From Edaphobacter bradus (GTDB lineage: Bacteria; Acidobacteriota; Terriglobia; Terriglobales; Acidobacteriaceae), in NCBI RefSeq assembly GCF_025685645.1, contig NZ_JAGSYF010000005.1:62001-126000 (forward strand): a DNA stretch of 64,000 bases, given 5' to 3'. Every line of letters starts with the position of its first letter. The stretch's first letter is position 1. Shown here piece by piece: positions 11,619-46,617 of this stretch. The translations under genes were made by a program, and so were the position numbers. Under the pieces are notes generated by a model. It had not been told where the DNA came from. It was given only the letters and a program-made list of their open reading frames with translations, and searched no databases.

Positions 11619-11641
11619 GGTCCGGAGTAAAAGGAGGAGTA

Positions 11642-13219: not shown

Positions 13220-13365
13220 CCTTATCATTGATCACTTCTATCTCATGCAGCGCTCTGATTTCCCCTAGCGGAGAGTGGATCACTTAGGTCTCCAGGCTCA
13301 TCGCAGTCTGTAGTCATATGAAGCTCGTTTCATTCCGCACCAACAACCTATAGGAGCGGATCGCC

Positions 13366-15345: not shown

Positions 15346-15392
15346 ATCTATTTGCAGCGTTGTGGAAGGGTAGCGGGAAGGACGGGGAGACA

Positions 15393-32701: not shown

Positions 32702-33448
32702 GTGTTTGCTGCTAATAGACCTCGGAAGATCATCGTAAACGCGGACGACTTCGGGATGAGCGCGGAAACGAATCGGGCGATCGTAGAAGCATTCGGCGAG
32801 CATGTGATCTCGAGTGCCACCCTGATGGCCAATATGCCGGGTTTCGACGAGGCCTGCGAAATGGTGCATCGCCATGGGCTTCTGGGGAAGATCGGAGTGC
32901 ACCTGAACCTCACCTCGGGACATCCATTGTCATCTCCCATTCAACGATGCACGCGGCTTTGCGATGACAGGGGGATGTTTCGGATGCGGCACACTCGGTT
33001 TCGGTTGTCGAAGGACGAGAGGCTTGCCGTGGAAACGGAGATCGCTGCACAGATACAAGCGTGCCTGGACCGTGGGCTTGTTCCGACGCACATGGATTCA
33101 CACCATCATGTCCACACGGAATGGGCGATTGGAGCGGCAGTCATCTCTGTTGCACGCAAGTATGGGATAAAGGCTATCCGATTGACACGCAACTGTGGCC
33201 CTGGGATCAGTTTTGCACACAAGCTCTACAAATTGGCGTACAACACCAGGCTGCGGATGTATGGCCTGGCGAAGACCGACTATTTTGGCTCCTTCGCAGA
33301 CGTGCAGGAGATCCTTGCAACTGCATCGTGTGACGTTGAGGTAATGGTGCATCTTCCTTCCGATGGTGCCGAAAGCATTCTCGATCCCAGCGAAGGCCCA
33401 AGAATGGAGCGCTGGTTTCGCGCGTATCAGCTTGCGAGCTATTCCTGA
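32702..33448 (+). CDS. ChbG/HpnK (YdjC)-family carbohydrate deacetylase
   Basis: The 248-residue protein has the metal-binding motifs IVNADDFGMS (Asp-Asp) and THMDSHHHVHT (His ligands), plus VEVMVHLPSDG, where the final catalytic-region His sits. Relatives deacetylate chitobiose (ChbG) or hopanoid GlcNAc (HpnK). It is the second deacetylase of the locus, with the PIG-L protein. The GTG start lies 3 bp after the previous stop with GAGGTG upstream. Confidence 0.88.
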   Translation: MFAANRPRKIIVNADDFGMSAETNRAIVEAFGEHVISSATLMANMPGFDEACEMVHRHGLLGKIGVHLNLTSGHPLSSPIQRCTRLCDDRGMFRMRHTRFRLSKDERLAVETEIAAQIQACLDRGLVPTHMDSHHHVHTEWAIGAAVISVARKYGIKAIRLTRNCGPGISFAHKLYKLAYNTRLRMYGLAKTDYFGSFADVQEILATASCDVEVMVHLPSDGAESILDPSEGPRMERWFRAYQLASYS

Positions 33449-33572
33449 TCGGCAGGGGATCAACGGGCATTTTCAGGAGGTGATTGCAGGGCGGTAGCAC
33501 ACGTTAAGGAAAGTGATAGATAAGAACAAGATTGAATCAGGCAGACGAAATGTACCAGGAGGTCGAAGCTCT

Positions 33573-34256
33573 ATGAAACGCATCGCAATCATAGGTGCGG
33601 GTGGATATGCCCGCGAAGTGGCGTGGCTGCTCGAAGATATCTCCGCGGCGACTAATCCAGAGGCGGGGTATGCAACGGTCGGTTTTCTGGTAAGCGACAC
33701 AAGTAGAATCGGGCCTCATGACAGCCCCATCTTAGGAGATTTCTCGTGGCTTGAATCAAATCATGTTGATGCTCTTGCCATGGGAATTGGCACTCCTGCA
33801 GCAAGGCTCACACTCTCCGAGAATCTAAGGGAGAGATTCCCACACATCGCATGGCCGGCGCTGATCCATCCCAGTGTCAAATGGCAGCAGCGAACGATGC
33901 AGGTTGGAGAAGGGGTGATTCTCTGTGCTGGCAGCATCGCCACCGTGAACGTTCGATTTGAGCCATTCTGCATGATCAACTTGTCTTGCACTATCGGCCA
34001 TGAGGCTGTGATCGGCCGCGGTTGTGTGCTCAATCCAACGGTCAACATCTCGGGTGGCGTCGAACTGGGAAGCGGAGTGCTCGTCGGAACCGGCGCGCAG
34101 ATTATGCAGTACGTTAAGGTTGGCAATGGTGCTCGGATTGGCTCAGGAGCGGTAGTGAATAAGGACGTCAATGCGGATACGACCGTGGTTGGAATTCCTG
34201 CCAAAGAATTGATCAAGAAATCACCGATTGAAGCCGTGGCAGCCACGGCCGCCTAG
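33573..34256 (+). CDS. PglD/NeuD-like sugar O/N-acetyltransferase
   Basis: The 227-residue protein combines an N-terminal PglD-type nucleotide-sugar-binding domain (IAIIGAGGYAREVAWLL) with a C-terminal left-handed beta-helix of hexapeptide repeats (VGEGVILCAGSIATVNV, VVGIPAKEL at the end). PglD acetylates the 4-amino group of UDP-4-amino-bacillosamine precursors. With the PglF-like dehydratase and the PglC-like transferase directly downstream, a diacetamido-trideoxyhexose primer is likely. ATG 33573 follows AGGAGG at ten bases; the frame extends 60 bp upstream. Confidence 0.87.
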   Translation: MKRIAIIGAGGYAREVAWLLEDISAATNPEAGYATVGFLVSDTSRIGPHDSPILGDFSWLESNHVDALAMGIGTPAARLTLSENLRERFPHIAWPALIHPSVKWQQRTMQVGEGVILCAGSIATVNVRFEPFCMINLSCTIGHEAVIGRGCVLNPTVNISGGVELGSGVLVGTGAQIMQYVKVGNGARIGSGAVVNKDVNADTTVVGIPAKELIKKSPIEAVAATAA

Positions 34257-34994
34257 GTGAAAAGTGGCACAGATATCACCATGGCTCCTTCGCCAGAACT
34301 CGTTCTAAGCTACAAGCTGAAACGGCTGTTCGATTTGTGTGCTGGGGTTGTGGCCCTCGTTCTGATGTCACCGCTCATGCTGTTGATTGGGTTACTGGTA
34401 GCAGTGTTCCTGGGGAAGCCGGTCGTATTTCGGCAGCAACGCCCTGGGTTGCACGGACAACTGTTTACTCTGTTGAAGTTTCGGACGATGGCAGAAAACG
34501 ACAGGGAAACAGGAAAGCCGGTTCCGGACAGCGAACGCATGACGGCATTTGGGCGCTTTCTTCGCAGCACGAGTCTTGACGAGCTACCAGAGCTGATCAA
34601 CGTGCTGCGCGGCGAAATGAGTATCGTCGGTCCTCGGCCGCTATTGGTGTCTTACCTTATGCGGTACTCTCCTTTCCAGATGCGCCGGCACCAGGTGCTT
34701 CCTGGTATCACGGGGTGGGCGCAAGTCAACGGTAGGAACGCTGTAAGTTGGGAGCGCAAATTCGCAATGGATGTCTGGTATGTCGATCATCAGTCCTTGT
34801 TGCTTGACCTCAAGATCATTGCCCTGACTTTGTGGAGTATCACAAGGCGAGATGGAATCGACCAGCCCGGCCTGGTTGGGGCAGCCGAGTTTATGGGCAG
34901 CGGTGACGTAGAAGCTATTCCTGTAGCGGATGCGACTGTGCGTTGTCACGCCGTCACGCCCAGCATTGAAGAAGCCGACTCATGTCGGCAATAG
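34257..34994 (+). CDS. PglC/WcaJ-type initiating phosphoglycosyltransferase
   Basis: This 245-residue monotopic membrane enzyme transfers the first sugar-phosphate to undecaprenyl phosphate. Signatures are KRLFDLCAGVVALV (re-entrant membrane helix), FRQQRPGLHGQLFTLLKFRTM, RSTSLDELPELINVLRG (catalytic Asp-Glu) and MSIVGPRPLL...ITGWAQVNGRN. It lacks the extra membrane domain of WbaP and so is the short PglC form. GTG 34257 abuts the previous stop; ATG 34281 is an alternative. The last ~40 residues are unconserved. Confidence 0.92.
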   Translation: MKSGTDITMAPSPELVLSYKLKRLFDLCAGVVALVLMSPLMLLIGLLVAVFLGKPVVFRQQRPGLHGQLFTLLKFRTMAENDRETGKPVPDSERMTAFGRFLRSTSLDELPELINVLRGEMSIVGPRPLLVSYLMRYSPFQMRRHQVLPGITGWAQVNGRNAVSWERKFAMDVWYVDHQSLLLDLKIIALTLWSITRRDGIDQPGLVGAAEFMGSGDVEAIPVADATVRCHAVTPSIEEADSCRQ

Positions 34995-35055
34995 GCACGA
35001 CCGCAGAGAGAGCCTTACACGCAGCGGTCGAAACTACTCACGAGAAGGAGGCAGT

Positions 35056-35799
35056 ATGGAAAGCAAAGCCACTAAACCTATCTCTGCGGAAATGTTCCCA
35101 GGGCCAGGCTTTCGCGTGAACGAGGATGTTCGTCGTTTGGATCCAGCTCTGATGAGCGAATTTACAGAGTTTGCCACCCCGGATATTTCTGACATGCTCA
35201 ATCGTCTGTACGCGGTCGATCCGGGAATCGCCCGCCTGACAAGTAACGAGCACAAGCTGTGCGGACCGGCCTGCACTGTCAAGGTCTTCCCAGGTGACAA
35301 TCTGATGGTACACAAAAGTCTAGACGTGGCCAGGCCAGGAGACATTGTGGTCATCGATGCTCATGCGTCGTCCATGAATGCGGTATTGGGTGATTTGGTT
35401 TCAACCAAGGCGAAACATCGTGGCATCGCCGGCTTCATCGTAGATGGATTTGTTCGTGACTTACCCGGCATCATGGAATTGGATTTTCCCATATTTGCTC
35501 GCGGCACTACATCTATCGGCCCACTTCATCGCGGGCCAGGCGAGATAAACTACCCAATCTGCTGCGGCGGCATTGTGGTGAACCCCGGCGACGTCATTGT
35601 TGCAGATGGTGCAGGCATTGTCGTTATTCCGCAAGAAGTGGCGTCCGACCTGCTGAAGAGGTTACGCAACCATAAGGTCAGCATGGCGGCTTACCTGGCA
35701 GGTGTAAAGCGCGGTGACTTTTCCAACGCGTGGGTAGACAGAATTCTGTCAGAGGCAGGATGCGCTGTCAGTACTGCAAGTGAAACGGTAGCCGCATAA
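35056..35799 (+). CDS. RraA-like / class II pyruvate-aldolase family protein
   Basis: The 247-residue protein belongs to the RraA-like family, which includes 4-hydroxy-4-methyl-2-oxoglutarate aldolases and oxaloacetate decarboxylases. Signatures are ATPDISDMLNR, CGPACTVKVFPGDNLMVH, VIDAHASSMNAVLGDLVS, and FIVDGFVRDLPGI, which holds the Arg-Asp pair that binds substrate and metal in the aldolases. It starts at ATG 35056 after a clear AAGGAGG and opens a five-gene cassette. An aldol or retro-aldol/decarboxylation step on a 2-oxo acid is the family's known chemistry; use here is inferred. True RraA (RNase E inhibitor) lacks this context. Confidence 0.85.
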   Translation: MESKATKPISAEMFPGPGFRVNEDVRRLDPALMSEFTEFATPDISDMLNRLYAVDPGIARLTSNEHKLCGPACTVKVFPGDNLMVHKSLDVARPGDIVVIDAHASSMNAVLGDLVSTKAKHRGIAGFIVDGFVRDLPGIMELDFPIFARGTTSIGPLHRGPGEINYPICCGGIVVNPGDVIVADGAGIVVIPQEVASDLLKRLRNHKVSMAAYLAGVKRGDFSNAWVDRILSEAGCAVSTASETVAA

Positions 35800-35818
35800 A
35801 GTGTACGGAGGTTCTCTG

Positions 35819-36907
35819 GTGTATCCGCTGATGTGCCGACCGGGCGTGGCCACAATCCTTTACATCGGGTATCGCATAAAAGAAGCGTATCGTGTGCGTC
35901 ACCCGGCCACTCGGCTTGCCCTTGAACATCGATCGCAGTTCTATACAGAACTATGGTGTGATGCTGCAAAGCAACTTGGAGCTAGCATCGAAGCGTTGGG
36001 AAGTGAGATTCTCGAAATTCGACTTGGTCAGAACTCCACACGTGTTCGACAGACCACGACTTGTTGCGATTCTGCAATCGCTGGTGTAGTGGCTGGATAC
36101 AAGCCTGTAGTGCACCGTTTATTAGCAAGGCGGCAATTGCGAACGCCCACGTATTGCGAATTCACCCTGAACGAGATTACCAAAGCCGCCGCTTTTGTCG
36201 AAAGCTCCGCAAGTAAATGTGTTGTAAAACCTGCCAATGGCGGAGCCGGCGAAGGTGTGACGACTGGTGTCATTGGCAGTTTCGACTTGGTTCTTGCAGC
36301 TGCAAACGCGGCAGTCCACGGTCCCAATCTTATAGTTGAGCGGCAGGTCCCAGGCGATGTCTATAGGCTTCTCTACTTCGACGGTGTGTTGATGGATGCG
36401 GTCCTACGAAGACCTTCTACTGTAGTAGCCGACGGCAAATCCACCGTTCGGGAATTGATTCGCCTTGAAAACGAAGCCAGGTTGAACGCAGGGCCGAACC
36501 TTGCAAACGCACTTATTGTGATTGACATGGACGTGCGAAGGACGCTCGCGAACCAGGGTTTGACACTTTCTTCTGTGCCAGTGCAGGGAATCGCAGTAAC
36601 CCTAAAAACCGTCATTAACGACAACTCACAACGCGACAATTTCTCGGCAAAGCATCTGTTGTGCAAGTCAATCATTGAAGATGGCGCAGCGGCCGCGGAG
36701 GCTGTCGGCGTACGACTCGCTGGCGTCGACGTGATCACGCCTGACCCCAGTGTGCCCCTGGCTGAGTCGGGCGGCGTCATCCTGGAGGTCAATACAACGC
36801 CCTCGTACCATCACCACTACTACAAGCGGGACGGGAGTTATCCCGTCGCCGTCCATCTATTGCCCTTTCTGCTCGCTAACGGCGTGGCGGAACAATTTAC
36901 TGCCTGA
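35819..36907 (+). CDS. ATP-grasp ligase resembling the central domain of cyanophycin synthetase
   Basis: The 362-residue protein has the ATP-grasp pattern of cyanophycin synthetase: KCVVKPANGGAGEGVTTGV (phosphate loop), IVERQVPGDVYRLLYFDG, RRPSTVVADGKSTVREL, and metal ligands near ILEVNTTPSYHHHY. It lacks the Mur-ligase half that cyanophycin synthetase carries, so it should form just one kind of carboxylate-amine or amide bond. GTG 35819 with GGAGG seven bases upstream is preferred to the GTG at 35801. It follows the RraA-like gene by 19 bp. The substrate is unknown. Confidence 0.82.
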   Translation: MYPLMCRPGVATILYIGYRIKEAYRVRHPATRLALEHRSQFYTELWCDAAKQLGASIEALGSEILEIRLGQNSTRVRQTTTCCDSAIAGVVAGYKPVVHRLLARRQLRTPTYCEFTLNEITKAAAFVESSASKCVVKPANGGAGEGVTTGVIGSFDLVLAAANAAVHGPNLIVERQVPGDVYRLLYFDGVLMDAVLRRPSTVVADGKSTVRELIRLENEARLNAGPNLANALIVIDMDVRRTLANQGLTLSSVPVQGIAVTLKTVINDNSQRDNFSAKHLLCKSIIEDGAAAAEAVGVRLAGVDVITPDPSVPLAESGGVILEVNTTPSYHHHYYKRDGSYPVAVHLLPFLLANGVAEQFTA

Positions 36908-36923
36908 AGACAGGAGATGCTCG

Positions 36924-37949
36924 ATGACTAAAATGTTCACCTTCGACGCGGATAATTATGCGGACGTATTTGCGAACAATGGCTACGTACACATCCCGGA
37001 GGGCTTGTCCGAAGAGTTCCACGCCCGCCTGGTTAAATATGTCGAGGATTCATTTGACAAGAAGCATTTGAAAGACTTCGCTCGCGGCGACAAGCAGCAA
37101 GCGTTGTTCGAATTCCTTGAGCCGGAACACTATGATGAACTGCGCGAGGTCGTCGCGGCAATCTGCGGGGTGGAAGCGAGCAGTCTTACCTTATCAGAAC
37201 GCCACATCAAAGAGTACGAGCCCGGTGCTGCTCCTTATCCCCTGGCGCATAAGGACCGCTTTGGCTCCGAAATTGCCGTCGGATTCTCCATCCGCGTTCC
37301 GGTGGGATCAACGCTGGTGATTTATCCAGAGCATGACCTAAGCGCCAACCCATTTAACTCCACAGCCGAGCTACGCTCCAGCTTTTCCGCAAACGCGCAT
37401 CCAGAGGCGGGGTTGAAGCATGCGCTTCGGGTAGAAATACAGGATCAGCCGCGTGGTGTGCAGTTGTTTAGGGGAAATATGATGTGGCATCTGCGCGAGC
37501 ACGGCGCGGGTACCACAGTGCTGTATTTGAAGTTAAACACCTACAACTGCGACACACTGGGTGAAGATCCTCACAGCGTGGAGGTCCGGCAGCGCACACT
37601 ATCCATTGTGGACTCTTCCCCCTTCGAGTGGGCGGCTAGCATACCGGTCATTGCCAGGCGCGTCGATTACATCCAGCGCCGCTATAACCGCGATTGGAAC
37701 GAAGTGTTCGGTGTGGTCATCTACGGGCAGCCACATACGACTATCACTGAAGCCGAATTCGAAGCGCTGCGGTTGATGGATGGACAGCGAACAGTGACTG
37801 AAATCTCCCAGAGAACGGAACAATTATGCAAAGGCAGAGACGTGCGTGAGGCCATTCGTCTGTTAGCCCAGCGTGGCATTGTCGACCTGCTTACAAAGCC
37901 ACTCGCAATGGGGCAAGTCCGCCACATGGCCCTTCGTGAAGTGGCCTGA
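36924..37949 (+). CDS. Fe(II)/2-oxoglutarate oxygenase-like protein with PqqD-like C-terminal domain
   Basis: This 341-residue protein has two regions. Residues ~10-210 resemble phytanoyl-CoA/2OG oxygenases: NGYVHIPEGL at the N-terminus, His109-Lys-Asp111 as an HxD pair, and a distal WHLREHGAGT segment (His189) for the third iron ligand and 2OG contact. Residues ~265-325 (FEALRLMDGQRTVTEISQR then REAIRLLAQRGIVDLL) follow the winged-helix pattern of PqqD/RiPP recognition elements. This fusion is unusual. The likely role is hydroxylation of a carrier- or peptide-bound intermediate, but neither activity nor a precursor peptide is proven. ATG 36924 has AGGAG upstream and lies 16 bp after the previous gene. 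Confidence 0.6.
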   Translation: MTKMFTFDADNYADVFANNGYVHIPEGLSEEFHARLVKYVEDSFDKKHLKDFARGDKQQALFEFLEPEHYDELREVVAAICGVEASSLTLSERHIKEYEPGAAPYPLAHKDRFGSEIAVGFSIRVPVGSTLVIYPEHDLSANPFNSTAELRSSFSANAHPEAGLKHALRVEIQDQPRGVQLFRGNMMWHLREHGAGTTVLYLKLNTYNCDTLGEDPHSVEVRQRTLSIVDSSPFEWAASIPVIARRVDYIQRRYNRDWNEVFGVVIYGQPHTTITEAEFEALRLMDGQRTVTEISQRTEQLCKGRDVREAIRLLAQRGIVDLLTKPLAMGQVRHMALREVA

Positions 37950-37985
37950 CCGCTGCAATCCGCAACTGACACGGGAGGTATCACA

Positions 37986-39326
37986 TTGCTAAATAGTAAG
38001 CTGCCGCCTGCTCTTATTGTTGGAGGGGACCATGGAGCTCTTTCAGCCGCCAGGAGCCTGGCGGCCGTTTCGATAAAGGTCTATGCGATCAACCATCCGC
38101 TGGCAGATGTTCGGTACTCTCGGTTCTGTACCTGGATCGACCTATCGGCACGTACGGCAAATGCACCAGAAGCCTGGGCGACGTACCTTCTCGGGCGTGA
38201 GTCTGATCATCTCCGAGGGGCAGTTCTGCTGGCGGCGAGCGATGAAGCAATTGAGCTCATCGCCGAGCACCGCGAGCTACTCTCTGAAAGGTTCAGGCTC
38301 GACTTGTCGAACCCAGCAGCCCAGCTCTGCATGCTCGATAAGCTAGGCACGTACCGCGCTGCACAGGCAGCGGGTATACCCACTCCAAAATTCTGGGTGG
38401 CCGATACGCGCAAGCAGGTCGAAGGGTTGGAGCACGAGTTAGTGTTTCCTCTTGTCCTCAAACCGATCCTCGGCCACAAGTTTCGCAGGAAATTCTCAGG
38501 ATCCTACACTGTCACTTACAACATGAAAGAGTTGCTGAACGCTTTTGATACGGTCTGTTGCGCAGGCATCCGGACCTTTCTTGTCGAGATGATTCCCGGA
38601 CCGGACGATAAACTATGCAGCTATTACACCTACCTGGATGCGAATGGGAATAATCTCATCGATTTCACTAAGAGGGTTATTCGTAGATATCCCATGAACA
38701 TGGGTGGAGCAAGTTACCACATAACTGACCACGTACCAGATATTCAAGAGCTGGCATTGGCACTATTCCAGAAGGTTGGGTTGCGTGGCGTGGCGAACGC
38801 CGAGTTCAAGATGGATGAGAGGGATGGCAAGCTTAAACTGATTGAATGCAATGCGCGCTTTACTGCCGCGGATTGTTTGCTCGTCGCCAGTGGATTGAAT
38901 TTACCTTTGTTTGTATATAACAGGCTGACTGGCCGCGCACAGGCGGCGCCGTCCAGTTACCGCATGGGGATGCGGCTATGGAATCCAGTCGGAGATTTTG
39001 CGGCTTACCGGCAACTGAACAAAATGAGGTTGTTGACTTTCAAGGCATGGATACGCAGCATCATGCACCGAAATCTCTTTCCCGTCTTCCGGTGGAGTGA
39101 TCCGCTCCCTGCAATCGTTGGCAGCATCCGGCTGGTTCTTTATGCCTGGTCTCGCGCCACCTCAAAAGTAGGCAACGGAAATCGTACCGCACACCTGCGC
39201 CTGCCGAGCGTGCAGCAATCGTCACAACCTTTGACCACAACAATTGCGCCAGATATCCCCAGGCATCAGGAACCAACGATTGGGCTGTCCCAGAAACAAA
39301 CGTTCGACCGGTGTCGCAATGGATAA
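37986..39326 (+). CDS. Second ATP-grasp enzyme (carboxylate-amine ligase-like)
   Basis: A 446-residue protein. It has an N-terminal Rossmann-like domain (ALIVGGDHGALSAARSL), a lid region (KLGTYRAAQAAGIPTPKFWV), FPLVLKPILGHKFRRKFSG for ATP binding, and LKLIECNARFTAADCLL with the metal-binding Glu and Asn. The layout is that of ATP-grasp enzymes which join a carboxylate to an amine (as in carbamoyl-phosphate-synthase-like ligases of surface-sugar loci). The C-terminal ~90 residues are poorly conserved and may associate with membrane. The TTG start has GGGAGG seven bases upstream. The stop overlaps the next gene's ATG by 8 bp. Confidence 0.82.
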   Translation: MLNSKLPPALIVGGDHGALSAARSLAAVSIKVYAINHPLADVRYSRFCTWIDLSARTANAPEAWATYLLGRESDHLRGAVLLAASDEAIELIAEHRELLSERFRLDLSNPAAQLCMLDKLGTYRAAQAAGIPTPKFWVADTRKQVEGLEHELVFPLVLKPILGHKFRRKFSGSYTVTYNMKELLNAFDTVCCAGIRTFLVEMIPGPDDKLCSYYTYLDANGNNLIDFTKRVIRRYPMNMGGASYHITDHVPDIQELALALFQKVGLRGVANAEFKMDERDGKLKLIECNARFTAADCLLVASGLNLPLFVYNRLTGRAQAAPSSYRMGMRLWNPVGDFAAYRQLNKMRLLTFKAWIRSIMHRNLFPVFRWSDPLPAIVGSIRLVLYAWSRATSKVGNGNRTAHLRLPSVQQSSQPLTTTIAPDIPRHQEPTIGLSQKQTFDRCRNG

Positions 39327-40293
39327 TTACTCACATCAAACCACAATCGGGATTCTGTACCCAGGTGAAATGGGAGCCACCTTCGGAAAGTTACTGTGCG
39401 GGGTTGGCTTTCGAGTGGTGACGACCGTCGAGGGCAGAAGTCTTCGTACCCACCGCCTTTGTCAGGAGGCCGGTCTGAGCGTGGTTGATTCTCTTGGCGA
39501 AGTTCTTGCGCATTCCGATGTTGTGATATCGCTTGTTTCACCTAGCGCAGCGTTTCCCGTAGCCAGAGACGTTGCTGCGCACTTAGAGCGCTCGCCCCGA
39601 AGCTTGTTGTATGTTGACGCGAACTCCATCTCCCCCATGACTGTGGCACGAATCTCTGAGGTATTGTGTCGCGTACCCGTTGATTTCGTCGACGCGTCGA
39701 TCGTTGGTGTAGCTTCCCAACTTCGGCAGAGGGGGACCTTATACCTCAGCGGATCGCGTGCAAAAGAACTTTCAGGTCAATTCGAGCCCATCGTGCGTAT
39801 CAAGAACATCGGGGAGATGCCCGGCCAAGCGTCGGCTCTCAGAATGATTCTCTCGGGGATAACGAAAGGCTTGCCGGGGTTGTTTATAGAGACAATGCTG
39901 TTTGCCCAGGACATGCATCTACTCAACGAGGCGATTGAAACCTGCGATGAGCTTTACCCCGGCATGATGGAATTGATCAGACGGTGGGTGCCCACGTATC
40001 CAGAGCATGCCGCGAGACGGTGCGAAGAATTACAGGAAGTTGAAGAGACAATGTTGATCAGTGGTTCGACACCTCGAATCGTACGTGCTGTCCGGGAAGT
40101 CATATCCGCTTTGGCCAGTATCGGCTGGCCAGACGACGAACCGCAGCAGTGGACCATTGTCGATATCATCAGGGAGATCCAAAGGCAGGGCACACTACAG
40201 GCGTCAGAGTCTCACTCCGATCAATTCCCAGAACACAAGAATGGGTCGGGACCTGGTGACCAGCCGATTACCGTCGGAAGCCGATCTCCCTAA
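39319..40293 (+). CDS. 6-phosphogluconate dehydrogenase-like / 3-hydroxyisobutyrate dehydrogenase-family protein with DUF1932-like C-terminus
   Basis: The 324-residue protein has an NAD(P)-binding start (IGILYPGEMGATFGKLL), VVISLVSPSAAF and VDFVDASIVG as in beta-hydroxyacid dehydrogenases. Its C-terminal helical domain matches the DUF1932 type (LSGITKGLPGLFIETMLFA, where the catalytic Lys of the superfamily is expected). It should oxidise or reduce a 3-hydroxy acid or related compound. ATG 39319 overlaps the preceding ATP-grasp stop by 8 bp, so they are coupled. It ends the five-gene cassette. Together with the RraA-like aldolase it suggests handling of a small hydroxy-dicarboxylic acid; this is inference. 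Confidence 0.8.
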   Translation: MDNYSHQTTIGILYPGEMGATFGKLLCGVGFRVVTTVEGRSLRTHRLCQEAGLSVVDSLGEVLAHSDVVISLVSPSAAFPVARDVAAHLERSPRSLLYVDANSISPMTVARISEVLCRVPVDFVDASIVGVASQLRQRGTLYLSGSRAKELSGQFEPIVRIKNIGEMPGQASALRMILSGITKGLPGLFIETMLFAQDMHLLNEAIETCDELYPGMMELIRRWVPTYPEHAARRCEELQEVEETMLISGSTPRIVRAVREVISALASIGWPDDEPQQWTIVDIIREIQRQGTLQASESHSDQFPEHKNGSGPGDQPITVGSRSP

Positions 40294-40405
40294 TGATCCG
40301 AAGAACAAAACGAATATCGCCTCGAACCTTTCGTCGGGATCTAGCAACGATTTCAATGAGGTCTGCAAAGAAATGACTTATCTAACTGTTGATTAACAAA
40401 AAACC

Positions 40406-41548
40406 ATGGTCACCATACAAGGCAATCCGGCTCGCTCGGTCCTATCTGCTCTCCGTCGGTATCGGCCGGCTGCCGCACTGGTGACCGCCCTGAGTCTGAC
40501 CCTTCTTGTGCAAGGAAGTGGCGCCGGCAAGACTTACTACGTTTCGCCCATGGGCAGCGATTCCAACGCATGCACCCAGGCCAGGCCCTGCGCGAAGCCT
40601 GACTATGTCTTCAATAAAAAGGCGTCCGCTGGCGATACGGTTCGGGTTGCACCAGGCACGTATGATTACGGGACCGATGCGGCGGCCCAGTTTCTTAAGT
40701 CAGGAACGGCTGTCAACTACATCACCGTTACCTGCGCCACCCGAGGCGCGTGCAAGATTCAGAACTCCATAACTGGTAATCGCACGGTGGTTGTGCTGGG
40801 AGGCAGCTACATTACCTTCGACGGTTTCGAGGTGACGAATAACAGTTCGGCAGGTAACAACCTCGGTCTCTATGTGACCGGTTCGTTCGTGAACATCACC
40901 CACAACACCATCCACCACATCGAGACCGATTGCAGCGAGAACGGCGGCGGCGGTATCCAACTCGCAGGCAGCGGAAGACAGAGCGGCACCGGCCACCACA
41001 TCGTCATTGACTCCAACCGGATTTATGACATCAGTTGGACGAGCTGCCAAAACTCGTCTTCGCGGCAGACAGACGGTATCCTAGCGGAGACCGCAGGCGG
41101 CGGCATTACCATCACCAACAACATCGTCTACCACGTTGCCGGTGGCTGGGGCATTATGATGGGAAATGGTAGAGGCAGTGCCGCTCCAATGGTGGTCCAA
41201 TACAACACTGTCTTTAGTAACGGGAACGGCGGTATCACGCTCGTCGGCGGTACGGTACCACCCATCATCACGAATAACATCGTGTTGAACAATGGCCTTA
41301 TCAATCCGAGATGCGGCATCAATCTGCCACATGGCCTTTCGGGCACAGTTGGTCACAACGACCTATGGAACAACGCCGGAGGCAATTACTGCGTTGAATG
41401 GGGCAGCAGCGATCAAAGAGTTCATGCGGACGATATCTCCGTGGATCCTGCTTTGGGAACTACGTTTATCAACTGGCAAGCGGATGGTTCTGGAGACTAT
41501 CGCCTGAAGGCGGACAGCCTCAAAATGGGCGCAGGCTCAAGAGACTAG
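40406..41548 (+). CDS. Secreted right-handed parallel beta-helix protein, C-terminus truncated
   Basis: A 380-residue exported protein with a signal peptide (hydrophobic stretch ~25-40), then TYYVSPMGSDSNACTQARPC and a pectate-lyase-like beta-helix with repeated NNIV/HNTIHHIE rungs. It is strikingly similar, at protein and DNA level, to the C-terminal half of the lipoprotein encoded at 43485-45782 on the other strand. Compared with that protein it ends early: after GDYRLKADS the last ~30 residues (DFDGKTRS...DIGAHQY in the paralogue) are replaced by a short unrelated end, next to an IS3 remnant. It may still fold, since the beta-helix core is intact. Polysaccharide binding or cleavage is a possible role; no catalytic residues can be assigned. 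Confidence 0.82.
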   Translation: MVTIQGNPARSVLSALRRYRPAAALVTALSLTLLVQGSGAGKTYYVSPMGSDSNACTQARPCAKPDYVFNKKASAGDTVRVAPGTYDYGTDAAAQFLKSGTAVNYITVTCATRGACKIQNSITGNRTVVVLGGSYITFDGFEVTNNSSAGNNLGLYVTGSFVNITHNTIHHIETDCSENGGGGIQLAGSGRQSGTGHHIVIDSNRIYDISWTSCQNSSSRQTDGILAETAGGGITITNNIVYHVAGGWGIMMGNGRGSAAPMVVQYNTVFSNGNGGITLVGGTVPPIITNNIVLNNGLINPRCGINLPHGLSGTVGHNDLWNNAGGNYCVEWGSSDQRVHADDISVDPALGTTFINWQADGSGDYRLKADSLKMGAGSRD

Positions 41549-41619
41549 ATGCGTCGCCTGATAAGTGGATGGTTCTCGTGATAACCACCAGAAGGTGGCT
41601 CCGGACTGGGCGTAGGTTC

Positions 41620-41710
41620 CGGCGAAGATACTCGACGCTGGATTACGTGAGCCCGTTGCAGTACGAAGAATGGCCAGGGAAAGCGCAGCAGTCGCAAACT
41701 GGGAAACGCA
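41620..41710 (+). mobile_element. IS3-family transposase C-terminal remnant
   Basis: Translation in the frame running into the next gene gives RRRYSTLDYVSPLQYEEW, the characteristic end of the IS3 OrfB transposase (usually R-R-x-H-S-x-L-G-Y-x-S-P-x-x-Y/F-E). No other part of the transposase and no inverted repeats are visible. It lies just after the shortened end of the beta-helix gene, so an IS insertion followed by decay probably caused that truncation. The coding frame is open through to the membrane protein but this part is not likely to be its N-terminus. Confidence 0.65.
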
Positions 41711-41727
41711 TTCTGAGGGCAAGGTCA

Positions 41728-43263
41728 ATGGGAGTTCATTGGAGGACAATACGACGGTTCACAAGTGACAGAGGCCCTCTGCTCACGTTAGCGGTGGCGT
41801 TCTCCGTGGTTTGCTCATGCGTGCTCGTAACCTCTGGATTCATCAGAGGCACCGACCAGTTCTGGTATGTTGCCGACGTGGAGTCGCTTGTCCATGGCCA
41901 ACACGTCACAAACAACATATTCCCAGCAAACCTGGCCACGCCCGGACCGCTGCCCCGCTCGTTCGTACACAACAACCTCACGCTTTACGTCGTCGTTCCC
42001 CTAGCACGGCTCTTGGGTGGGCAGGCAGGTTGGCTCGCGACGAACCTCGCATGCACTGGTGGTTCTGCGCTGCTTGTTTTTCTGTCATTACGGAGAACAT
42101 CTGCCAGGGCCGCCGCTCTGGCGGCATCATTCCTTCTGCTCTTGCCGCTAACCATCTGGGTAACATGCAACGCACTTTCAGAGCCAATTTACGTCTTCCT
42201 TACCACGCTATGTTTATTCGTATGGCTCCGCGCCAGGCACCCACTGAGCCAAGCACTCTTCGTGATCGCTGCAGTCGCTGCCGCCCTCGCAAAAGAGAAT
42301 CTCGTGGTCCTGTTGCTGGTGCCTATTTTGAGTCTCTGTCTCTGGCGGGGCGAATGGCGCAGCAACTTCCGGGGCTCGTCGTACCTCGTATGTATTTCTC
42401 TGTTCGGCTTAGCGCTGTTTGCCATTCTCCGGAACATGGTCTTCGCCGAAAATATTCATTACTCGTTGGCCGCCCGACTGATTACCACCCTCCCGCCGAA
42501 AAATGACAATATGGCCCCATATTTTCTCTCCACTCCCCCCGACTTCAATTGGGCACTGTTCTGGGAGAAGGCTGCGCGGAACGTACCTGCGCTGGTCAGA
42601 TTCGCGCCTACGGAGGCACCATTTTTAGTACCATTTTATGCTCTATTGGGACTCTTTCTCTGGTGTCTTGCCTCGAATTGGAGAACGCTTTCGATTGACT
42701 GTAAAGCGTCAAGGGCCTGCGTCGTGACGATCATGCTCATTGCGTCTTATTGCGCAACCGTCCTGCTCTTTCAGAACGAATCGCGCTATGTCTGTTTCCT
42801 AATTCCCTCTTTGCTTGTCTCCACGTCATTTTTGGTAAGTTGGACGGAGCGAAGGATCCGAATTCTTGAGGTCTGCCTTCTATGCCTGCTACCTGTCGCA
42901 CCTGTCCTAGCGTTCCGGGTTCGCAAAGAAGGTATGCAACAGTCTGTGGAGACAAAGAAGATCCAGCAGTTTGTCGACTCCCATTTGGGGGAGGGAATCC
43001 CACTGTTGGTAGTACGCGATTCAGGCGATGGATCTCGTTTTATTGAGGTGACGTTCGCGGTTCGGCCCAGGGCTACTCTGGTTATTGAAGAGCCGAACTT
43101 TTGCGGCCAATTGAATCGGTATCGCAAACGGTTCGACGTCCGGTACGCCTTCGGACAGGCATCGTTTCTTGCGTCCATGAGCAAGCATGTCGCCGACATT
43201 GAGCGCGATGCAGGTCGCTACGCCGGCTATGGCGTGTTTGACATCCAAACTAGCTGTCAATGA
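41728..43263 (+). CDS. GT-C-type membrane glycosyltransferase-like protein
   Basis: The 511-residue polytopic membrane protein has about 10-12 hydrophobic helices. Its first periplasmic loop carries an acidic residue (FIRGTDQFWYVADVESL), as in polyprenyl-phosphate-dependent GT-C enzymes (PMT/ArnT-like). A soluble C-terminal region starts near residue 405. The frame is open 330 bp further upstream, but that part holds the transposase remnant, so ATG 41728 (AAGG just before) is chosen. It probably transfers a lipid-linked sugar at the outer face of the inner membrane. It is flanked by the two beta-helix paralogues. Confidence 0.72.
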   Translation: MGVHWRTIRRFTSDRGPLLTLAVAFSVVCSCVLVTSGFIRGTDQFWYVADVESLVHGQHVTNNIFPANLATPGPLPRSFVHNNLTLYVVVPLARLLGGQAGWLATNLACTGGSALLVFLSLRRTSARAAALAASFLLLLPLTIWVTCNALSEPIYVFLTTLCLFVWLRARHPLSQALFVIAAVAAALAKENLVVLLLVPILSLCLWRGEWRSNFRGSSYLVCISLFGLALFAILRNMVFAENIHYSLAARLITTLPPKNDNMAPYFLSTPPDFNWALFWEKAARNVPALVRFAPTEAPFLVPFYALLGLFLWCLASNWRTLSIDCKASRACVVTIMLIASYCATVLLFQNESRYVCFLIPSLLVSTSFLVSWTERRIRILEVCLLCLLPVAPVLAFRVRKEGMQQSVETKKIQQFVDSHLGEGIPLLVVRDSGDGSRFIEVTFAVRPRATLVIEEPNFCGQLNRYRKRFDVRYAFGQASFLASMSKHVADIERDAGRYAGYGVFDIQTSCQ

Positions 43264-43423
43264 GGGTGCGCGAGCGCATACGTCGCCACAAATCCGCGAA
43301 GAGCGGGGCATTGATTGGTGCTTAGGGCTCTGTAGGAGCGAAACGTCCGAGTGACAACTCGATTGGAGGGCTGCAGGTCTGCCGGGATTTGGCCATTCGA
43401 GATAGTTCGTGCTGATAAAAAAT

Positions 43424-43463
43424 AACCCCATCCCACGAGGAAAACTCCTCGCAGAATGGGGTT
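43424..43463 (-). terminator. Rho-independent terminator of the minus-strand lipoprotein gene
   Basis: AACCCCAT (43424-43431) pairs with ATGGGGTT (43456-43463), with an inner CGAGG/CCTCG stem. Read on the minus strand the hairpin is followed by ATTTTTTAT. It lies 22 bp past the lipoprotein stop and separates it from the converging polysaccharide locus; it probably stops both. Confidence 0.85.
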
Positions 43464-43484
43464 GTGTTGTGTCGAGTCCTTCCG

Positions 43485-45782
43485 TTAGTTGTACTGGTGC
43501 GCTCCGATGTCGTATGGTACCGACCTCGTCTTGCCGTCGAAGTCGGTGGCTGGAGGGGCTCCTAGAGTGGAATTACCAGTGCCAATCGTAGGCGAACCTG
43601 ACTTCTCGTGATAATCGCCGGAACCATCCGCTTGCCAGTTGACAAATGTCGTCCCCTGCGCCGGGTCCACGGAGATATCCCCGCTTCCAGGATCGGAAAT
43701 GGGAGTTCCCCACTGATGGCAATAGTCAGCACCGCGGTTGCCATGTACATCGTTATGAGCCACCGTCACGCTGTTGCCGGGTGCCAACATAATGCCACAC
43801 TGCCCACTGACGAGACCGGTGTTGAACACCATGTTATTGGTGATATAGCCGTTGTTGAGCCCGTCGAGGATACCGCCGTTCGAGGTGGAGAACACAAGAT
43901 TATTGGCAACGGTAGCGCCGTCTGACGCTATCAGGATTCCCCAACCACCGCCCGTATGGTGGACGATATTGTTGGTCACTACGATGTTGGCACCGCCTGT
44001 TTCCGAAAGAATGCCATCGCTCTGCACGGTAGAGGCACTGCATTTCCAGCCACTTTGTGGCGTGTAATTGATATCGTAGATCAGATTGGAATCCATCGTG
44101 ATGTTATGCCCGGCCCCGAGTGACGAGCCGCTACCGGCGATCTGGATGCCGCCGCCGCCGTTCGAGCCGCAGTCGGTTTCGATGTGGTGGATGGTGTTAC
44201 GGGTGATGTTCACGAACGAACCGGTCACATAGAGACCGAGGTTGTTACCTGCCGAACTGGTATTCGTCACCTCGAATCCGTCGAAGGTAAGGTAGTTGCC
44301 TCCCAGATAGACCACTGTGGAATTGCCGGTCACGGAGTTCTGAATCTTGCACGCTCCTCGCGTGGCGCAGGTAACAGTGATATATTTTCCCGCAGTTCCC
44401 GACTTCGTAAATGATGCTGCACCACTTCCGTAATCATACGTACCTGCTGCGACCTGCACGGTTTCGCCAGGCGACGCAAGATTGAAAGCATGATCGGGGG
44501 TAGCGCAGGGGCTGCTTTGACTGCACGAGTTGGAATTGCTGCCCGATGGCGAGACATAGTAATTGGCACTGGTGCCCGGGCTGCTTGTTGCCGCGGCAAT
44601 GGTGAGACTCAGCGTAGCCGAGGCAGTCTGGCCCGTAGCATCGCTTACTCCGACACTGTAGGTGCTCGTTCCTGAAACAGATGGCGTGCCGGAGAGAACG
44701 CCAGCGTGGCTCAAGGTAAGGCTCGGATTGCAGGACCCTGAACAGCCTTTTACTACCCATGTATAGGGAGTAGTCCCACCGGTCGCAGTGAGGGTGGTGC
44801 TGTAAGAGGTAGATACAGTGCCACTCGCAAGTGTGCTGGAGGTAATAGCGAGAGGAGAAGGGGTGGCTGCTCCGGCCGCGATGGTGATGTTGGCGGGCGC
44901 CGAGGCAGTCTGCCCCTTCGCATCGGTTACTTTGACAGTGAAGGTGGAGGTTCCGGTATTAGCTGGTGTGCCAGACCATACTCCAGACTGACTGAGGGCA
45001 AGGCCTGCATTGCAGGCTCCAGAACAGGTCGTAACTGCCCACGTATAAGGAGTCGTTCCTCCGGTAGCGGTCTCTGAAGCGCGGTAGGCGGAGCCCACAA
45101 CGCCACTCGGAAGTGTGCTGGAGGTAATAGCGAGAGGAGAAGGGGTGGCTGTTGCGGCCGCGATGTTGATGATGGCGGGCGCGGAGGCAGTCTGCCCCTT
45201 CGCATCGGTTACTTTGACAGTGAAGGTGGTGGTTCCGGTATTAGCTGGAGTGCCAGACCATGCTCCAGACTGACTGAAGGCAAGGCCTGTATTGCAGGCT
45301 CCAGAACAGGCCGTAACTGCCCACGTATAAGGAGTCGTTCCTCCGGTAGCGGTCTCTGAAGCGCGGTAGGGGGAGCCCACAACGCCACTCGGAAGTGTGC
45401 TGGAGGTAATAGCGAGAGGAGAGGTGGTAGCTGATTTGGCCGCGATGGTGATGATGGCGGGCGTGGAGGCAGTCTGCCCCGTCGCATCGGTTACTTTGAC
45501 AGTGAAGGTGGTGGTTCCGGTATTAGCTGGTGTGCCAGACCATACTCCAGAATGGCTGAAGGCAAGGCCTGTATTGCAGGCTCCAGAACAGGCCGTAACT
45601 GCCCACGTATAAGGAGCCGTCCCACCAGTAGCGGACTGTGAAGCGCTGTAGGCGGAACCCACAACGCCGGTGGGAAGGGTGCTGGAGGTAGGAGTGAGAG
45701 GGGAGTTAATGGTTGAACCGCACGCCGTGACGGTAGCCAGTGCCGCTAAAAATAGTAGGGCAAAGATTCTTTTGATAAACAT
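43485..45782 (-). CDS. Lipoprotein with four Ig-like repeats and a parallel beta-helix domain
   Basis: A 765-residue protein. The signal peptide ends in a lipobox (VTAC, Cys near residue 21). Then come four tandem Ig-like domains of the putative He_PIG type, about 94 residues each, with TATGGTTPYTWAV and GVWSGTPANTGTTTFTVKV in each. After them a C-terminal right-handed beta-helix (~360 residues) opens YYVSPSGSNSNSCSQSSPC and closes with DFDGKTRSVPYDIGAHQY. The beta-helix half is a close paralogue of the protein at 40406-41548. It is probably a cell-surface protein that binds or cleaves polysaccharide. ATG 45782 is chosen because GAGG lies six bases upstream; an in-frame ATG is 12 bp earlier. 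Confidence 0.88.
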   Translation of the reverse strand: MFIKRIFALLFLAALATVTACGSTINSPLTPTSSTLPTGVVGSAYSASQSATGGTAPYTWAVTACSGACNTGLAFSHSGVWSGTPANTGTTTFTVKVTDATGQTASTPAIITIAAKSATTSPLAITSSTLPSGVVGSPYRASETATGGTTPYTWAVTACSGACNTGLAFSQSGAWSGTPANTGTTTFTVKVTDAKGQTASAPAIINIAAATATPSPLAITSSTLPSGVVGSAYRASETATGGTTPYTWAVTTCSGACNAGLALSQSGVWSGTPANTGTSTFTVKVTDAKGQTASAPANITIAAGAATPSPLAITSSTLASGTVSTSYSTTLTATGGTTPYTWVVKGCSGSCNPSLTLSHAGVLSGTPSVSGTSTYSVGVSDATGQTASATLSLTIAAATSSPGTSANYYVSPSGSNSNSCSQSSPCATPDHAFNLASPGETVQVAAGTYDYGSGAASFTKSGTAGKYITVTCATRGACKIQNSVTGNSTVVYLGGNYLTFDGFEVTNTSSAGNNLGLYVTGSFVNITRNTIHHIETDCGSNGGGGIQIAGSGSSLGAGHNITMDSNLIYDINYTPQSGWKCSASTVQSDGILSETGGANIVVTNNIVHHTGGGWGILIASDGATVANNLVFSTSNGGILDGLNNGYITNNMVFNTGLVSGQCGIMLAPGNSVTVAHNDVHGNRGADYCHQWGTPISDPGSGDISVDPAQGTTFVNWQADGSGDYHEKSGSPTIGTGNSTLGAPPATDFDGKTRSVPYDIGAHQYN
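44577..45704 (-). repeat. Four 282-bp tandem repeats encoding Ig-like domains
   Basis: Repeats run 45704-45423, 45422-45141, 45140-44859 and 44858-44577. Copies 2 and 3 are nearly identical at DNA level, copy 1 is close, and copy 4 (next to the beta-helix) has diverged most. The gradient suggests recent duplication by unequal crossing-over at the N-terminal side. Confidence 0.85.
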
Positions 45783-46524
45783 CAGGGTCCTCATTCATAT
45801 AAAAAGATTGAGCGCCAATTAGCGGGCAGCTTCGCCGGAAGCTAAAGGCACAGTTCTGCTGATCCCTGTGAGGAGCAAGGCTGTCCGAGGTTCAGCCTTG
45901 GCGCACAGAGTCAAAGTTCCAGGTTTTTAGTTTGTTCCTTGCACAGTCGTACGAAGACTTCGACGCTTATCTAGACGCGTCGAGAGTCGTGTCGCCAACG
46001 ATGCGAGGGGTATTACTGGATTCAGCTGCGAATGGCCAGGCTGGGCCGAAGCCAACGCATTCGAAGGAGCACGCCCATACAGTGCGAGCGGCTCTCGGGA
46101 CAAGTTTGTCCCGGAAAAAGAGAAGAGTTGCTTCAAAATAAATACACCTCAAGTTAAATTGCTGACTTATTTAGCTGAGGGCAGGAAGACAACAGGTACA
46201 ACAGAAAGTTGCATTTCGGAAGGGAGATACTACTCTATATATACCCACCGATGATCTGGTGCGCATTCGCGCTTGCCACCGGGCTATACCGAAATCTGCA
46301 CTTCTCAATCCCGAACCTATGAGGAATGGGATGACTTCTTAACTATAATTGCAATGAGCGTGCGGCGCAATGCAACTTATGTGTAAAAGTGAGGTGAAAA
46401 TGCAATATTTTGCTGTTATAATATATCGCCTTTAGAATGATGGCGAAATTAGCATGAGTTGAGAAGTACACCTGCGTAAATTCATGCGCCCACCAGAGCA
46501 GCTCCCGCGAGTTCAGGATGTGGC
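45783..46524. other. Intergenic, AT-rich in its right half, no clear gene
   Basis: About 740 bp between the lipoprotein start and tRNA-Gly. A 69-codon open frame at 45932-46141 has no family signature and no good ribosome site. The part 46140-46470 is distinctly AT-rich, with several TATAAT-like boxes (for example around 46420), and may be foreign or a promoter zone. It presumably also holds the lipoprotein promoter. I see no other RNA gene. Confidence 0.4.
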
Positions 46525-46542: not shown

Positions 46543-46617
46543 GCGGGAGTAGTTCAGTGGCAGAACGTCAGCTTCCCAAGCTGAATGTCGCCGGTTCGAT
46601 CCCGGTCTCCCGCTCCA
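46543..46617 (+). tRNA. tRNA-Gly (anticodon CCC)
   Basis: A full cloverleaf is present: acceptor GCGGGAG / CTCCCGC, anticodon stem TCAGC / GCTGA with loop TTCCCAA (anticodon CCC), T arm with GGTTCGATCC, discriminator T and an encoded CCA. It is followed 36 bp later by a strong terminator. Confidence 0.95.

What the first reader, a model, noticed from the sequence alone, without database searches (positions are those of the whole stretch)
35056..40293. Five-gene RraA / ATP-grasp / oxygenase / ATP-grasp / dehydrogenase cassette inside a polysaccharide locus
Seen: five genes in one direction with gaps of 19, 16, 36 and -8 bp, each with a good ribosome site, between the initiating transferase and a beta-helix protein. 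Known: RraA-like proteins do aldol/decarboxylation chemistry on 2-oxo acids, ATP-grasp enzymes form amide or related bonds, DUF1932-type dehydrogenases act on hydroxy acids, and 2OG oxygenases hydroxylate. Inference: the cassette makes a small hydroxy-dicarboxylic or amino acid unit and joins it, perhaps via two successive amide bonds, to amino sugars freed by the nearby deacetylases or to a peptide. I know of no described pathway with this set.
Basis: partly seen in the sequence, partly recalled or inferred. Interest (0 to 1): 0.82.

Follow-up and report, generated by a model that had tools for sequence, protein, structure and literature searches.

The report
Two-ligase acid-attachment module in polysaccharide locus
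A soil acidobacterium carries, inside a slime-polysaccharide gene cluster, a small conserved set of enzymes that probably makes an organic acid and joins it to the polymer; the same set minus one gene recurs in a different cluster of another genus, and the paper searches made here found no description of it.

Summary
The five genes exist at the stated coordinates with the stated gaps. Four are identified: an RraA-type aldolase, a stand-alone cyanophycin-synthetase-type ATP-grasp, a second ATP-grasp with the PurK / L-amino-acid-ligase fold, and a DUF1932 dehydrogenase. The fifth, called an oxygenase, matched no family above cut-off, and its HxD...H motif is what chance gives. Three other genomes of the genus carry the set inside the same polysaccharide locus. 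Another genus has RraA, both ATP-grasps and DH in the same order, 56-78% identical, WITHOUT the 'oxygenase', in an unrelated exosortase-linked glycan locus. So the unit is a four-gene core plus a genus-specific addition. RraA and DUF1932 genes also lie together in 7 of 11 other DUF1932 loci of the family sample, in the one scanned a gallate/protocatechuate-type operon, which points to hydroxy-oxo-acid chemistry. Best reading: RraA and DH make a small hydroxy (di)acid that two acyl-phosphate ligases join by amide bonds to the polysaccharide unit; substrates are inferred, not shown. Here the DH has arginine where all aligned relatives have the expected catalytic lysine.

The parts
35056..35799 (+). 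RraA-family metal-dependent pyruvate aldolase/decarboxylase (core gene 1)
   Evidence: PF03737 6.1e-47; PRK06201 223.9 bits, just under its cut-off 231; equivalents of 3NOJ N71, H75, D102, R123, D124 kept as N82, H86, D113, R134, D135; T145 and K147 replaced by P156 and H158 (alignment, roles)
35819..36907 (+). Stand-alone cyanophycin-synthetase-type ATP-grasp ligase (core gene 2), GTG start
   Evidence: TIGR02068 1.2e-40, PRK14016 5.4e-41 over the ATP-grasp part only; PDB 7lgm 2.1e-20; K137-P138, D304 and E323-x-N325 invariant in five orthologues
36924..37949 (+).
   Evidence: no Pfam, NCBIfam or PDB match of significance; H109-x-D111...H189 invariant in the three orthologues aligned but the pattern is not beyond chance; C-terminal part HTH_47 0.027, under cut-off
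37986..39326 (+). Second ATP-grasp ligase, PurK / L-amino-acid-ligase / PylC-like fold (core gene 3), TTG start
   Evidence: PRK12767.1-1 2.3e-14; AlphaFold model pLDDT 65.6, most ten-residue blocks of 61-290 at 72-94; VIA-align Z 21.9 to PurK 10bm, 20.8 to L-amino-acid ligase 3vot
39319..40293 (+). DUF1932 / beta-hydroxyacid-dehydrogenase-like NAD(P) enzyme (core gene 4)
   Evidence: PF09130 2.5e-10, PF03446 1.1e-5; PDB 4ezb, 1i36, 3qsg at 1e-20 to 2e-18
39841..39843 (+). Codon AGA = Arg175 where relatives carry the lysine expected to be catalytic
   Evidence: K in the other 8 of 9 sequences aligned, 3 module DH among them; K also in the G640 DH and in 4ezb, 1i36, 3qsg; codon
10374..34994 (+). 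Wzx/Wzy-type polysaccharide locus that hosts the cassette (two DegT, Wzc-like, Wzx-like, Wzy_C, Poly_export, GT4-type genes, PIG-L, WbqC, YdjC, PglD-like, initiating transferase)
   Evidence: Pfam scans of these genes; the part from 17738 on is syntenic in G034 and G196, from 26244 on in G640; 10374-17684 was not compared

Best explanation
The unit is a four-gene biosynthetic core, RraA - ATP-grasp 1 - ATP-grasp 2 - DUF1932 dehydrogenase, embedded in extracellular-glycan loci of one acidobacterial family. Proposed working: RraA forms (or trims by decarboxylation) a pyruvate-derived 4-hydroxy-2-oxo acid; the dehydrogenase traps it by reducing the oxo group to a hydroxy group, pulling an otherwise unfavourable aldol addition forward; the two ATP-grasp enzymes activate carboxylates as acyl phosphates and make two successive amide bonds, one probably joining the acid to an amino acid and one to an amino sugar (or both to one diacid) on a cytoplasmic glycan precursor before export. 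The extra protein at 36924 is a genus-specific tailoring or helper function. Shown: the four gene identities, the four-gene conservation and the two different contexts. Inferred: direction of the aldol step, the substrates, the amide linkage and the attachment to glycan.
For: Same four genes, same order, 56-78% identical, in a second genus inside a different glycan locus with exosortase, GT4, GT2, deacetylase and Acetyltransf_6 genes; the other genes there are at most 30% identical to the window's where they match at all. In 62 genomes of the genus, ATP-grasp 1, the 36924 protein and WbqC ring in exactly the same four genomes. RraA keeps the R123/D124 and N71/H75 equivalents. Both ligases keep residues of the ATP-grasp signature, the assignment of roles being recalled. 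An RraA-family gene lies one gene upstream of DUF1932 in 7 of 11 non-module DUF1932 loci of the family sample, 2 of the other 4 being cut by a contig end; in the one scanned by NCBIfam these are CHA aldolase and oxalomesaconate tautomerase genes. RraA is directly upstream of DUF1932 on an Azospirillum plasmid. A related pair of stand-alone ATP-grasps is adjacent in another acidobacterial family, and both kinds lie in one glycan locus in a third. Precedent: a TupA-like ATP-grasp domain amidates glucuronate in the Campylobacter capsule (PMC11800379, passages).
Against: No substrate or product evidence. Only one locus outside the genus carries the core. The window copy of DH has Arg for the expected catalytic Lys, so in this very genome the reduction step may be lost or altered. 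RraA lacks the T145/K147 equivalents of the known aldolase and falls below the CHA-aldolase model cut-off (128.9 against 304.5 bits), so its substrate probably differs. ATP-grasp enzymes also make free peptides. The 7 non-module DUF1932 loci opened from the phylum sample (G130 among them) had no RraA neighbour, so the RraA-DUF1932 link is not general.
Confidence: 0.45

Rival explanations
1. The core makes a free small molecule (a short peptide-like or N-acyl amino-acid metabolite) that is exported, and its place in glycan loci reflects shared regulation rather than attachment to the polymer.
For: ATP-grasp 2 has the fold of L-amino-acid dipeptide ligases (3vot Z 20.8, 4wd3 in the Foldseek list); ATP-grasp 1 belongs with ligases that make free or polymeric peptides (cyanophycin, NAGGN, GshAB).
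Against: Two different glycan contexts; no exporter gene of their own seen between or directly beside the four genes in either.
Confidence: 0.2
2. RraA and DH are a catabolic or salvage pair (hydroxy-oxo acid breakdown) and only the two ATP-grasps serve the polysaccharide.
For: The two families are catabolic together elsewhere; CHA aldolase cleaves aldols and decarboxylates oxaloacetate (PMC5065237 passages); pairs of ATP-grasps occur without them.
Against: The ligase genes lie between RraA and DH, closely spaced in both genera, with an overlapping DH start in the window; module RraA is only 24-28% identical to the acidobacterial CHA-aldolase-like proteins in full alignment.
Confidence: 0.15
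3. The ligases modify a protein or a surface anchor (for example an exosortase substrate) instead of the polysaccharide.
For: In G055 the core starts 241 bp after an exosortase/DUF3485 gene.
Against: No exosortase family match among the 27 locus proteins of the window scanned.
Confidence: 0.1
4. RraA is a regulator of RNA turnover and the set has no common pathway.
For: Family name; E. coli RraA binds and modulates the RNA degradosome (stated in PMC5065237, passage).
Against: Sequence is nearer to the aldolase (3noj 8.3e-29) than to E. coli-type RraA (1q5x 3.9e-9) and keeps the catalytic residues; conserved order in two contexts.
Confidence: 0.04

Closest known systems
Amide-forming ATP-grasp (TupA-like) domain Cj1438C in the Campylobacter jejuni capsule (PMC11800379, passages read)
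   Same: ATP-grasp ligase encoded in a polysaccharide locus; makes an amide on a glycan; works with auxiliary enzymes
   Different: one ligase, fused to a glycosyltransferase, joins an amine to a uronic acid; here two separate ligases of other subfamilies plus an aldolase and a dehydrogenase
Gallate / protocatechuate 4,5-cleavage operons (CHA aldolase, oxalomesaconate tautomerase)
   Same: RraA-family aldolase and a DUF1932 dehydrogenase encoded together
   Different: no ring-cleavage or tautomerase match among the 27 window locus proteins scanned; RraA 24-28% identical to the seven acidobacterial CHA-aldolase-like proteins aligned; two ligases added
Cyanophycin synthetase (CphA) and N-acetylglutaminylglutamine synthetase
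   Same: gene 2 aligns with their ATP-grasp part over most of its length
   Different: no Mur-ligase half and no further domain; 362 aa against 862 model positions
L-amino-acid ligases RizA (4wd3) and 3vot, PurK, PylC
   Same: overall fold of gene 3
   Different: about 12-18% identity; substrate unknown

Membership tests
CHA/HMG aldolase (TIGR02798) | score over curated cut-off 304.5 bits | tested here: not met
   128.9 bits
CHA/HMG aldolase (TIGR02798) | catalytic Arg123, metal ligand Asp124, pocket Asn71/His75 | tested here: met
   R134, D135, N82, H86 by the 3noj alignment; roles from PMC5065237 passages; the further metal ligand Glu199 lies beyond the alignment and was not tested
CHA/HMG aldolase (TIGR02798) | Thr145 and Lys147 of the active-site pocket | tested here: not met
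   Pro156 and His158
RraA subfamily PRK06201 | score over cut-off 231 bits | tested here: inconclusive
   window 223.9, G055 orthologue 234.2
RraA-like family (PF03737) | Pfam gathering score 24.5 | tested here: met
   160.1 bits
Cyanophycin synthetase (TIGR02068) | both ATP-grasp and Mur-ligase halves, cut-off 850 bits | tested here: not met
   139.3 bits, model positions 161-463 of 862 only
ATP-grasp superfamily (gene 3) | ATP-grasp fold | tested here: met
   993 of 999 chains aligned at Z >= 2; best Z 21.9, rmsd 4.2, 316 aligned
L-amino-acid ligases (RizA / 3vot type) | ligation of two amino acids | not testable with these tools
   fold only
2-oxoglutarate/Fe(II) oxygenases (PhyH and others) | profile similarity to a known family | tested here: inconclusive
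   up to E 10 only HTH_47 and HTH_9, both under cut-off; hhalign against 15 acidobacterial PhyH proteins probability 0.05%; model pLDDT 37.4, useless
2-oxoglutarate/Fe(II) oxygenases (PhyH and others) | HxD...H metal triad | tested here: inconclusive
   present (109, 111, 189), but the loose HxD/E...H pattern occurs in 83% of 5000 shuffles and in 18 of 29 window proteins
DUF1932 dehydrogenases | PF09130 gathering score 25 | tested here: met
   40.6 bits
beta-hydroxyacid dehydrogenases | catalytic lysine (role recalled) | tested here: not met
   Arg175 in the window copy; Lys in the other 8 of 9 aligned
Gallate/protocatechuate 4,5-cleavage pathway | ring-cleavage dioxygenase and oxalomesaconate tautomerase in the locus | tested here: not met
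   no such Pfam match among the 27 proteins scanned from 10374-45794

The most novel reading that the evidence does not exclude
A previously undescribed type of polysaccharide decoration: a branched hydroxy-dicarboxylic acid made by recruiting an aldolase/dehydrogenase pair of the kind used in aromatic catabolism, joined through two successive ATP-grasp amide bonds (acid-amino acid-sugar or a diacid cross-link), carried as a portable four-gene module between unrelated glycan loci.
Probability: 0.3. Interest if true: 0.72.

Novelty: new variant of a known kind. Interest (0 to 1): 0.5.

Why it matters
Acidobacteria are abundant in soil and their exopolysaccharides are chemically little known. 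A conserved four-enzyme set with recognisable chemistry and a defined accessory gene gives a concrete, deletable target for finding a new non-sugar substituent, and suggests how enzymes of a catabolic kind may have been recruited for surface polymer synthesis.

Tried and rejected
Oxygenase identity: hmmscan up to E 10, phmmer and profile search of PDB, tblastn of plasmids and phages, scans of viral and genome contigs, hhalign against 15 PhyH proteins and an AlphaFold model all failed to place the 36924 protein. The HxD...H motif was then tested against shuffles and found uninformative. The genome-contig scan used only two exact peptide patterns, so it finds close relatives only; its two loci have the contig lengths of the G196 and G640 contigs already in hand.

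Mobile five-gene cassette: rejected, because within the genus the host locus goes with it in the same four genomes (WbqC; 17738-40293 in G034 and G196; from 26244 on in G640).

ATP-grasp 1 as part of cyanophycin metabolism: rejected by length and missing Mur-ligase half. In the phylum sample 38 of 396 genomes rang; 31 of the 38 matches lie in frames over 800 aa and are read as full cyanophycin synthetases without further check. Of the three other frames under 800 aa outside the module, all were fetched; the third (G341) lies on a 3.5 kb contig and gave no neighbourhood.

Plasmid neighbourhoods of ATP-grasp 1, ATP-grasp 2 and DH: 6 opened. None of the 5 with annotation showed the core; the sixth has no annotation and was not read further. 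One had PIG-L, a glycosyltransferase and an ATP-grasp together; one had RraA next to DUF1932.

Literature (listings unless said otherwise): 'RraA' + 'ATP-grasp' + 'polysaccharide' 0 papers; 'DUF1932' 2, unrelated by title; 'WbqC' 12; six ATP-grasp/polysaccharide terms, 63 papers with five of them, 20 listed; 'amidoligases' + 'ATP-grasp' 34, 15 listed; 'Granulicella' + 'exopolysaccharide' 41, 12 listed; 'RraA' + 'aldolase' + 'biosynthetic gene cluster' 1, unrelated by title; CHA-aldolase terms 14; 'exosortase' + 'ATP-grasp' 1, both words in its reference list only; 'RraA' + 'exopolysaccharide' 15, 10 listed, the one opened uses rraA as a cluster boundary. Passages only were read of the papers opened. 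PMC3268129 (Iyer et al. 2009, amidoligases) and PMC9619395 (Riegert et al. 2022) are not held and were not read.

Rows left out: DUF1932 hit G616 in the genus was not opened. Of the 18 DUF1932 matches, seven in one genus (G348, G356, G364, G372, G394, G401, G450) were not opened. Overlapping shorter ORFs without a match were dropped from the gene maps, and ORFs under 120 aa were not listed.
Full report
Observation. The window lies in a genome of 13 contigs (G000, contig C5). Its genus, in the tool's grouping, includes genomes whose contigs have the lengths of records titled Granulicella sp. and Edaphobacter sp. (L011, L012), so it is acidobacterial. Four have Shine-Dalgarno-like sites; the fifth, which overlaps its predecessor, does not. 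GC of the five genes (0.534-0.546) is close to the window mean 0.563, so composition gives no sign of a recent foreign origin. Terminator-like sites in 33400-43600 are not in excess (8 found, 8.7 expected).

Identities. RraA: PF03737 at 6.1e-47; nearest solved structure the CHA aldolase 3noj at 8.3e-29. In that ungapped alignment N71, H75, D102, R123 and D124 are kept, while T145 is Pro and K147 is His. In the P. putida enzyme R123 stabilises the pyruvate enolate, D124 binds the metal, and T145A lowered kcat/Km about 100-fold without phosphate (passages of PMC5065237). So the protein is probably a working class II pyruvate aldolase/decarboxylase with another substrate. ATP-grasp 1: the ATP-grasp part of cyanophycin synthetase as a stand-alone 362-residue enzyme. 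ATP-grasp 2: sequence matches are weak, but a model from six sequences (pLDDT 65.6, C-terminal 85 residues under 50) aligns to PurK (Z 21.9, rmsd 4.2, 316 residues), L-amino-acid ligase 3vot (Z 20.8), PylC (Z 19.3) and carbamoyl-phosphate synthetase. DH: DUF1932, structural relatives 4ezb, 1i36 and 3qsg.

The 'oxygenase'. No search placed it, and the model was too poor to use (pLDDT 37.4; Foldseek nothing under E 0.001). The H109-x-D111...H189 pattern is invariant in the three orthologues aligned (76-78% identical), but a loose HxD/E...H pattern occurs in 83% of 5000 shuffles of the same protein and in 18 of 29 window proteins. I hold the oxygenase label as a plausible guess only.

Conservation in the genus. 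The 36924 protein, ATP-grasp 1 and WbqC each ring in the same 4 of 62 genomes of the genus (G000, G034, G196, G640). DH rings in those four and, far more weakly, in two others. In G034 and G196 the block from the second DegT gene (17738) to DH is syntenic, with protein identity of about 59-84% and one or two extra genes; G640 shows the same from 26244 on, split over two contigs. What lies upstream of 17738 was not compared. In this genus the set therefore travels with its locus. Outside it the 36924 protein was not found: 3 of 250 genomes rang in the family sample and 3 of 396 in the phylum sample, all of them in the genus.

The four-gene core. A DUF1932 search of 297 phylum genomes rang in 17. 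One, G055, in another genus of the family, carries RraA (78%), ATP-grasp 1 (56%), ATP-grasp 2 (63%) and DH (59%) in this order with gaps of 67, 25 and 8 bp by first start codon, so nothing lies between ATP-grasp 1 and 2. Its neighbours are an exosortase/DUF3485 gene upstream and a GT4 gene downstream, then on the other strand two GT4 genes, a polysaccharide deacetylase, two Acetyltransf_6 proteins and a GT2. None of these is more than 30% identical to the 29 window proteins compared. The seven other DUF1932 loci outside the module that I opened from that search (G513, G331, G494, G418 twice, G130, G442) had no RraA neighbour. A second search, with the module DH alignment over 378 family genomes, rang in 15: G000, G034, G196 and G055 with the module, and eleven others including G130.

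Link to catabolism. Of those eleven, seven have an RraA-family gene one gene upstream of DUF1932 on the same strand (G190, G205, G687, G710, G718, G745, G753). Two (G682, G736) end at a contig border just beyond the intervening gene, which has the same start sequence as in the seven. Two (G130; G042, on a 3.9 kb contig) have no such neighbour. In the one example scanned by NCBIfam (G190), the aldolase passes the CHA-aldolase cut-off (336 against 304.5), the gene between passes the 4-oxalomesaconate tautomerase cut-off (531.9 against 440), and a vanillate/3-O-methylgallate O-demethylase lies nearby. An Azospirillum plasmid has RraA directly before DUF1932 beside tripartite tricarboxylate transporter genes. 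The pairing is thus recurrent, though not general, and belongs to hydroxy-oxo-dicarboxylic acid chemistry. The module enzymes are distinct: RraA 24-28% identical to seven, and DH 23-27% identical to three, of the acidobacterial catabolic copies in full alignment.

A pair of ligases. ATP-grasp 1 over 396 phylum genomes rang in 38; 31 matches lie in frames over 800 residues, as in cyanophycin synthetase. Outside the module three lie in shorter frames. In G537 an ATP-grasp-1-like protein (32% identical) directly follows an ATP-grasp-2-like one (27%), in a context without obvious glycan genes. In G327 one (34%) lies with two deacetylase-like genes, a GT4 and, 4.6 kb upstream, another ATP-grasp protein (CPSase_L_D2 over its cut-off, ATPgrasp_Ter under it). 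The third, in G341, is on a contig too short to tell. This suggests that two such ligases can work together apart from RraA and DH.

How it may work. Inference from family chemistry: RraA makes or decarboxylates a 2-oxo acid, DH reduces it, and each ATP-grasp forms an acyl phosphate that is taken up by an amine. Two ligases and one acid-making pair fit an acid-amino acid-amino sugar or a diacid bridge. The locus offers amines: two DegT aminotransferases, PIG-L and YdjC-type proteins. A polysaccharide amide made by an ATP-grasp is known in Campylobacter (PMC11800379, passages). Published EPS of two Acidobacteria strains was analysed for neutral sugars and uronic acids, and no word beginning with 'amino' or 'acetyl' occurs in the main text held (PMC5259719, passages); so N-linked substituents seem not to have been looked for there.

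A caution for this genome. At the position of the conserved lysine (catalytic by family knowledge, recalled) the window DH has arginine (AGA at 39841-39843). The eight other sequences aligned, three module members among them, have lysine, and so does the fourth module member, G640. Either this strain has lost the reduction or the residue is tolerated.

Verdict. A real, conserved and, in the searches I made, undescribed enzyme set. It is best filed as a new variant of a known kind (non-sugar decoration of an extracellular polysaccharide by ATP-grasp ligases), with unknown product. The unit is four genes plus an optional fifth, not five.

Noticed in passing
39841-39843: DH carries Arg175 (AGA) where all relatives aligned carry the lysine expected to be catalytic; possible decay or change of function in this strain.
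   Followed up: partly
L120 7901-10304 (G537:C96): Adjacent pair of stand-alone ATP-grasps, like ATP-grasp 2 then ATP-grasp 1 of the window, without RraA or DH in the 14 kb read; a HipA-like gene lies nearby.
   Followed up: partly
L119 1906-8888 (G327:C67): Glycan locus with two deacetylase-like genes, GT4, a stand-alone cyanophycin-synthetase-type ATP-grasp and a second ATP-grasp protein.
   Followed up: partly
L124 1134-8299 and similar loci L125-L128, L130, L131: DUF1932 dehydrogenase of unknown role one gene after a CHA-aldolase-type gene in acidobacterial gallate/protocatechuate-type operons; in L124 a protein weakly like BshB1-type deacetylases precedes the aldolase.
   Followed up: partly
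23370-25097: 575-residue protein whose C-terminal part matches GINT1_N (PF24793, 8.1e-44), conserved in G034 and G196; role in this locus unknown.
   Followed up: no
40406-41548 and 43485-45794: Two related proteins; the second has Ig-like (He_PIG) repeats. G034 and G196 show no separate copy of the first next to DH but have a weakly similar 440-450 aa protein between YdjC and PglD.
   Followed up: partly
46543-46617: A tRNA-Gly (ccc) lies at the right flank of the polysaccharide locus, a possible insertion site.
   Followed up: no
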